This document shows positions 11,026-11,556 of a stretch of 11,556 nucleotides of DNA, one piece after another. A program made the translations under genes and the position numbers. A model generated the notes under the pieces. The model was not told where the DNA came from. It worked only from the letters and a program-made list of their open reading frames with translations, and searched no databases. The stretch's first letter is position 1; every line of letters begins with the position of its first letter. This stretch comes from Acidothermaceae bacterium (lineage in GTDB: Bacteria; Actinomycetota; Actinomycetes; Acidothermales; Acidothermaceae): NCBI GenBank assembly GCA_025925185.1, contig JAICLV010000075.1, forward strand, positions 1 to 11,556, read 5' to 3'.

Positions 11026-11556
11026 GTGTCGGAAGCGGAGCTACAGGCGCGATTCGACGCGCTGCTCGACGCCGACGAGCGGATCGAGCCGCGCGACTGG
11101 ATGCCCGACGCCTACCGCAGGACGCTCATCAGGCAGATCGCGCAGCACGCCCACTCCGAGATCATCGGCATGCAGCCCGAGGGCAACTGGATCACTCGCG
11201 CGCCGTCCTTGCCGCGCAAGGCGCTCCTGATGGCCAAGCTCCAAGACGAGGCCGGCCCCGGTCTCTACCTCTCCGGCGCCGCCGAGACGCTTGGCGTCGA
11301 CCGCGCGGAGCTGCTCGACCTGCTGCACACCCGCAAGCAGAAGTACTCGAGCATCTTCAATTACCCGACGATCACCTGGGCCGACGTCGGCGCGATCGGC
11401 TGGCTGGTCGACGGCGCCGCGATCACCAACCAGGTGCCGTTGTGCCGCTGCTCATACGGCCCGTACGCGCGGGCGATGATCCGTATCTGCAAGGCGGAGT
11501 CGTTCCATCAGCGGCAGGGCTTCGACCTCCTGCTCACGCTGTCGAACGGCACGCCC
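11026..11556 (+). CDS. paaA: 1,2-phenylacetyl-CoA epoxidase catalytic subunit PaaA, 3' end cut off by window edge
   Basis: The first 177 residues are present, starting at GTG 8 bases after GGAGG (11013-11017); in-frame GTGs at 11002 and 11017 are less likely. Identity to PaaA is unmistakable: IEPRDWMPDAYRRTLIRQI, HAHSEIIGMQPEGNWITRAP, KYSSIFNYPT, GWLVDGAAI and SYGPYARAMIRICK. PaaA is the ferritin-like diiron subunit that epoxidises phenylacetyl-CoA within the PaaABCE complex in aerobic phenylacetate degradation. By alignment to E. coli PaaA (offset 3), the iron ligands would be E45, E75, position 78, D129, E158 and H161. Position 78, normally His in EAGHG, is Pro here (CCC at 11257-11259), so one iron ligand is missing. 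YLYSAAETLG also reads YLSGAAETLG. The remaining paa genes should lie to the right. Function of this copy is uncertain despite clear family membership. Confidence 0.93.
   Translation, partial: MSEAELQARFDALLDADERIEPRDWMPDAYRRTLIRQIAQHAHSEIIGMQPEGNWITRAPSLPRKALLMAKLQDEAGPGLYLSGAAETLGVDRAELLDLLHTRKQKYSSIFNYPTITWADVGAIGWLVDGAAITNQVPLCRCSYGPYARAMIRICKAESFHQRQGFDLLLTLSNGTP

What the first reader, a model, noticed from the sequence alone, without database searches (positions are those of the whole stretch)
11254..11262. PaaA carries proline in place of a diiron-ligand histidine
The first ExxH motif of PaaA (EAGH in E. coli, E72 and H75) reads EAGP here. The codon is CCC where CAC would be His, a single transversion. 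Every other ligand position that can be seen (E45, E75, D129, E158, H161) is kept, and the frame is otherwise clean. Proline cannot bind iron, so this copy is either inactive, altered in chemistry, a structural paralogue, or a base-calling error. The neighbouring change YLYSAA to YLSGAA is in the same helix and hints at real divergence rather than one wrong base.
Basis: partly seen in the sequence, partly recalled or inferred. Interest (0 to 1): 0.75.

Follow-up and report, generated by a model that had tools for sequence, protein, structure and literature searches.

The report
Miscalled bases in ordinary paaA gene
A phenylacetate-degradation enzyme gene seems to have lost an iron-binding residue, but the change is one of a cluster of one-directional base differences absent from the closest relatives, so it is most likely a sequencing or assembly error rather than a new enzyme.

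Summary
The codon is there: 11257-11259 reads CCC (Pro86) in a partial paaA (11002-11556, +) running off the window end, where 120 of 120 listed homologues and 81 of 81 loci have His (E. coli H75). The gene is otherwise an ordinary PaaA in a normal place. But the Pro is not isolated. Against the closest metagenomic proteins, P0002-P0004, the window differs at the same six residues. The smallest explanation is six A->C and one G->C, all ending in C, five of the six codons within 62 bases. Five of the six are at columns at least 99% conserved; 119 homologues depart from such columns at most twice. None of the six window residues occurs in the 120 homologues or 81 loci. The neighbouring dinB shows no A->C change against its nearest match. 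A->C is a reported dominant Illumina error (passages). Most likely this is a patch of miscalled bases near the end of the held sequence, not an altered enzyme, paralogue or natural variant. No reads were available, so a real damaged allele is not excluded. Interest is low.

The parts
11002..11556 (+). paaA, 5' 185 codons (ring-1,2-phenylacetyl-CoA epoxidase catalytic subunit), running off the window end
   Evidence: ORF; TIGR02156 295.6 bits, cut-off 280; PF05138; PDB 4iit/3pvr matches
11257..11259 (+). Codon CCC (Pro86) at the position of the diiron-ligand His (E. coli H75)
   Evidence: 120 of 120 listed homologues have His; 81 of 81 loci have CAC or CAT
11212..11273 (+). Cluster of five codons (71, 75, 80, 86, 91) with six minimal base differences from P0002, all ending in C; inferred miscalled patch
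11494..11496 (+). Sixth aberrant codon (Ala165, Glu in relatives), next to the second ExxH; also A->C
   Evidence: base A at 11495 in 81 of 81 loci
9549..10904 (-). dinB (DNA polymerase IV), divergent neighbour, used as control: 99% identical to P0121, no A->C change

Best explanation
The window holds the start of a normal paaA. The Pro codon and five neighbouring or nearby aberrant codons are base-calling or assembly errors: bases that are really A (once G) were recorded as C on this strand, equivalently T or C recorded as G on the other. The probable source is the low-quality part of one or a few short reads that determined the consensus near the end of the contig. The gene in the organism most likely encodes the usual His ligand and an active PaaA. 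Shown: the codons, their absence from the relatives examined, and the direction and clustering of the differences. Inferred: that they arose in sequencing, the platform, low coverage, and that the window end is a contig end.
For: (1) Against P0002, 179 of 185 residues are identical, and the six differences need at minimum six A->C and one G->C; P0003 and P0004 share the same six and have one more each. (2) Five of the six codons lie in 11212-11273. (3) Five of the six are at columns >=99% conserved, where 119 homologues depart 0 times (102), once (16) or twice (1) (P0001 dropped for an internal duplication). (4) The six window residues occur in 0 of 120 listed homologues and 0 of 81 loci, although two of the six search peptides contained aberrant residues, which favours carriers. 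(5) Against G002, A sites that differ elsewhere go to G 144, C 64, T 20; the chance of all seven ending in C given their starting bases is about 3e-4. In 11197-11295, 15 of 19 differences end in C (Fisher p 1.3e-4; limits chosen after seeing the data). (6) dinB differs from P0121 at three internal residues; on the window's plus strand these read G->T, T->C and G->A (or T->A), none A->C. (7) Passages of PMC4381044: A replaced by C in 66% (R1) and 85% (R2) of the substitutions of A in the last 50 bp of MiSeq reads of one data set. Passages of PMC3334598: A to C the most frequent conversion in Genome Analyzer data, A/C exchange 29.2% in HiSeq data.
Against: No reads, coverage or quality values are available, and it is not known that the window end is a contig end. 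The DNA of P0002-P0004 could not be fetched, so the base changes are minimal inferences from protein, backed at DNA level by more distant loci. At codon 71 the first base C is itself the usual one in 80 of 81 loci (mostly Arg codons), so only if the true codon was Lys, as in P0002-P0004 and G002, are there two A->C there. The 62-base A->C count (5) is the highest in the window-G002 alignment but not far above other stretches (4 A->C near 11492; 4 T->G near 10030). E165A lies about 220 bases from the cluster, so one read tail may not explain all. All visible changes alter residues; this is what A->C miscalls would give here, since 17 of 18 A sites of G002 in 11197-11295 are at codon positions 1 and 2, but changes seen through protein alone would look residue-altering under any cause.
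Confidence: 0.9

Rival explanations
1. A real, recently damaged allele: one strain carries missense changes that abolish iron binding and is losing the phenylacetate pathway.
For: Substitutions at a ligand and at invariant residues would be expected to inactivate the enzyme; metagenomes contain strain variants (general knowledge).
Against: No stop or frameshift in 185 codons; the differences from P0002 all end in C and are clustered, with no other residue change. Neutral decay should scatter and include transitions: A sites elsewhere go to G more than twice as often as to C.
Confidence: 0.07
2. A functional PaaA with altered metal site or chemistry, or a structural (PaaC-like) paralogue.
For: The frame is open and five of six ligands are kept.
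Against: None of 120 listed homologues or 81 loci shares any of the six window residues. The ORF scores as PaaA, while PaaC of the relative scores 24.9 bits on that model. One PaaA above cut-off in each of 3 of 3 related genomes. Pro in the iron-binding helix is expected to be disruptive (established knowledge).
Confidence: 0.01
3. A chimeric assembly or gene conversion joining two different paaA genes.
For: The differences are clustered.
Against: No donor among the sequences examined: 0 of 120 listed homologues and 0 of 81 loci carry P71, L75, L80, P86, S91 or A165.
Confidence: 0.02

Closest known systems
PaaA, catalytic subunit of 1,2-phenylacetyl-CoA epoxidase (TIGR02156; E. coli 3pvr, PDB 4iit)
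   Same: Gapless alignment over residues 15-184; five of six diiron ligands and the Lys68 equivalent kept; the same position next to dinB as in relative G002, where paaB, paaC and paaD follow
   Different: Pro at the H75 position and five further residues not seen in the relatives examined; only 185 codons are in the window
Illumina substitution-error clusters (A->C / T->G miscalls; PMC3334598, PMC4381044, passages read)
   Same: One-directional changes, clustered, absent from near-identical sister sequences
   Different: Reads, quality values and platform are unknown here

Membership tests
PaaA (TIGR02156) | Score above the curated cut-off of the equivalog model | tested here: met
   295.6 bits against 280 with only 167 of 289 model positions present
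PaaA (TIGR02156) | Complete set of six diiron ligands (3 Glu, 2 His, 1 Asp; stated in a PMC5489048 passage) | tested here: not met
   Five kept, H75 equivalent reads Pro; attributed to miscalled bases
PaaA (TIGR02156) | Operon with paaBCDE downstream | tested here: inconclusive
   Window ends inside paaA; in G002 the same dinB-paaA order is followed by paaB, paaC, paaD; paaE was not looked for
PaaC (structural paralogue) | Match to TIGR02158 rather than TIGR02156 | tested here: not met
   Only TIGR02156 listed for the window ORF at E <= 0.001
Miscalled-base cluster | Differences of one direction, clustered, absent from near-identical copies | tested here: met
   Seven of seven minimal changes end in C; five of six codons within 62 bases; absent from P0002-P0004
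Miscalled-base cluster | Low coverage or low quality at the site, strand-biased support | not testable with these tools
   No reads; no whole genome held for the window

The most novel reading that the evidence does not exclude
A natural PaaA allele that has lost the Fe1 histidine and remodelled the surrounding helix (V80L, H86P, Y91S), acting as a metal-poor or catalytically silent subunit in a Paa complex.
Probability: 0.01. Interest if true: 0.6.

Novelty: not a real feature. Interest (0 to 1): 0.06.

Why it matters
It prevents a miscalled consensus from being recorded as a new diiron variant. It also gives a simple check for such claims: compare the direction and clustering of all differences from near-identical sister sequences before interpreting a lost active-site residue. 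If the change were real, it would be an unusual diiron epoxidase without one histidine ligand.

Tried and rejected
Own-genome search for a second paaA: no genome is held. Structure prediction was not run: I judged that it would not resolve a point change in a known fold. Paper searches for dark-G errors of two-colour instruments gave listings from which nothing was used; that the changes all read as ->G on the minus strand would fit such instruments too, but this is recall. Base context: on the plus strand 4 of the 7 changed bases directly follow a G, too few to decide the read strand. PMC9493321 (passages) gave no ligand residues for PaaA, and PMC13186573 (passages) nothing on the active site. 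Codon tallies against five loci: residue-changing codons in 11203-11279 are 5, 5, 7, 5, 7 of 26 for L082, L005, L001, L034, L002, against 6 of 139, 16 of 138, 13 of 139, 17 of 138, 17 of 138 in the flanks, while silent changes show no constant excess in the cluster. Chimera, paralogue and pseudogene readings are treated under rivals.

Full report
Observation. The window's right end holds an open frame from GTG 11002 to the last base, 185 codons. It matches the PaaA equivalog model TIGR02156 at 295.6 bits (cut-off 280) and PF05138, and aligns without gaps to PaaA chains 4iit and 3pvr. Codon 86, 11257-11259, is CCC; the aligned residue in those chains is His. Using the offset of 11 from E. coli numbering (Lys68, Glu49, Glu72 and Asp126 named in passages of PMC4498308; mapping), Pro86 is E. 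coli H75. The other five positions are kept.

How rare. A search of predicted proteins scored 8000 candidates and listed the best 120; in all 120 the residue is His. The rest of the 8000 were not seen. Among 81 genome loci (L001-L080 and L082) the codon is CAC in 80 and CAT in 1.

What surrounds it. The closest proteins, P0002, P0003 and P0004 (96% identity, JGI; P0002 is listed with 4 contigs), were compared residue by residue. P0002 differs from the window at exactly six of 185 residues: K71P, I75L, V80L, H86P, Y91S, E165A (relative, position, window). P0003 and P0004 show the same six and one more each. The smallest base changes are AAG->CCG, ATC->CTC, GTC->CTC, CAC->CCC, TAC->TCC and GAG->GCG: six A->C and one G->C. 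Five codons lie within 11212-11273. Loci at DNA level agree: at 11239, 11258, 11273 and 11495 the base is G, A, A, A in 81 of 81, and at 11224 A in 80 of 81 and G in 1. Position 71 varies in the family (Arg 75, Lys 37, Gln 5, Leu 3 of 120) but is never Pro, and in 80 of 81 loci its first base is already C, mostly in Arg codons; the count of two A->C there rests on P0002-P0004 and G002, which have Lys. None of the six window residues occurs in the 120 homologues or the 81 loci.

Is it more than chance? Of 185 columns, 108 are at least 99% conserved in 119 homologues (P0001 was dropped for an internal duplication). The window departs at five of these; 102 homologues depart at none, 16 at one, 1 at two. 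The columns were defined from those same homologues, which lowers their own counts, but they were also ranked by likeness to the window, which favours sharing its residues. Against the nearest held genome (G002, 87% DNA identity over paaA), the window's 1467 base differences over three aligned stretches give the local spectrum: A sites that differ outside the seven go to G 144, C 64, T 20, and G sites go to C 262, A 111, T 65. On that spectrum, seven of seven ending in C has a probability of about 3e-4. In 11197-11295, 15 of 19 differences end in C (Fisher p 1.3e-4; 9 of 13 and p 0.013 after leaving out the six coding ones). The limits of that stretch were chosen after seeing the data, and the count of A->C in 62 bases (5) is the top but not far above other stretches (4 near 11492; 4 T->G near 10030), so the strength of the case lies in the joint evidence. 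That the visible changes all alter residues is expected of A->C miscalls here: 17 of 18 A sites of G002 in 11197-11295 are at codon positions 1 or 2.

Control. The neighbouring dinB (9549-10904, minus) is 99% identical to P0121 over 451 residues. The three internal differences need, on the gene's strand, C->A, A->G and C->T (or A->T); on the window's plus strand G->T, T->C and G->A (or T->A). One of three ends in C on the plus strand, as a transition; none is A->C. The other window genes were not compared with a near-identical copy.

Gene identity. The relative's contig G002:C303 carries the homologues of window 1-5656, 8502-9190 and 9494-11556 in the same order, with paaB (TIGR02157), paaC (TIGR02158) and paaD (TIGR02159) after paaA. 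Each of 3 of 3 related genomes has one PaaA over cut-off; the weaker second match lies within the paaC gene in G002 and is taken for PaaC in the other two by its place beside paaA. Thus the window's gene is most likely the operon's own paaA, not a spare paralogue. Whether this organism has another copy could not be tested. Names given to near hits (Acidothermaceae MAGs) suggest an uncultured actinobacterium of that neighbourhood.

Interpretation. A->C is reported as the most frequent conversion in Genome Analyzer data, with A/C exchange at 29.2% in HiSeq data (passages of PMC3334598), and as 66% and 85% of the substitutions of A in the last 50 bases of R1 and R2 MiSeq reads in one data set (passages of PMC4381044). 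A one-directional cluster in a strongly constrained gene, missing from near-identical copies and lying within 350 bases of the end of the held sequence, is best explained as miscalled bases that reached the consensus. That the window end is the contig end, that coverage was low there, and the platform are inferences. The remaining serious rival is a real damaged allele; reads would decide. A functional altered enzyme is very unlikely.

Novelty and score. Nothing here points to a new kind of system; the feature is judged not real, interest 0.06.

Noticed in passing
window 5665-8397 (-): A gene pair: an MBOAT/DltB-like protein (TIGR04091 180.4 bits, below its cut-off of 375) and a 425-aa protein without an NCBIfam match (AlgJ-like by recall). 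The pair is missing from relative G002:C303, where the flanking alignments end about 90 bases apart.
   Followed up: partly
window 4463-5656 (+): A 397-aa cysteine-ligase-like protein that falls below the cut-offs of both cysS (297.7 of 340 bits) and MshC (280.4 of 485.1); a similar ORF is in G002. May be another kind of paralogue.
   Followed up: no
window 8493-9185 and 9549-10904 (-): A dienelactone-hydrolase-like gene (PF01738) follows dinB; several dinB homologues of about 700 aa (e.g. P0129, P0132, P0134) carry domains of both in one protein.
   Followed up: no
protein P0001: A metagenomic PaaA with an internal repeat that includes the ExxH helix; probably a misassembly, dropped from the conservation count.
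   Followed up: no
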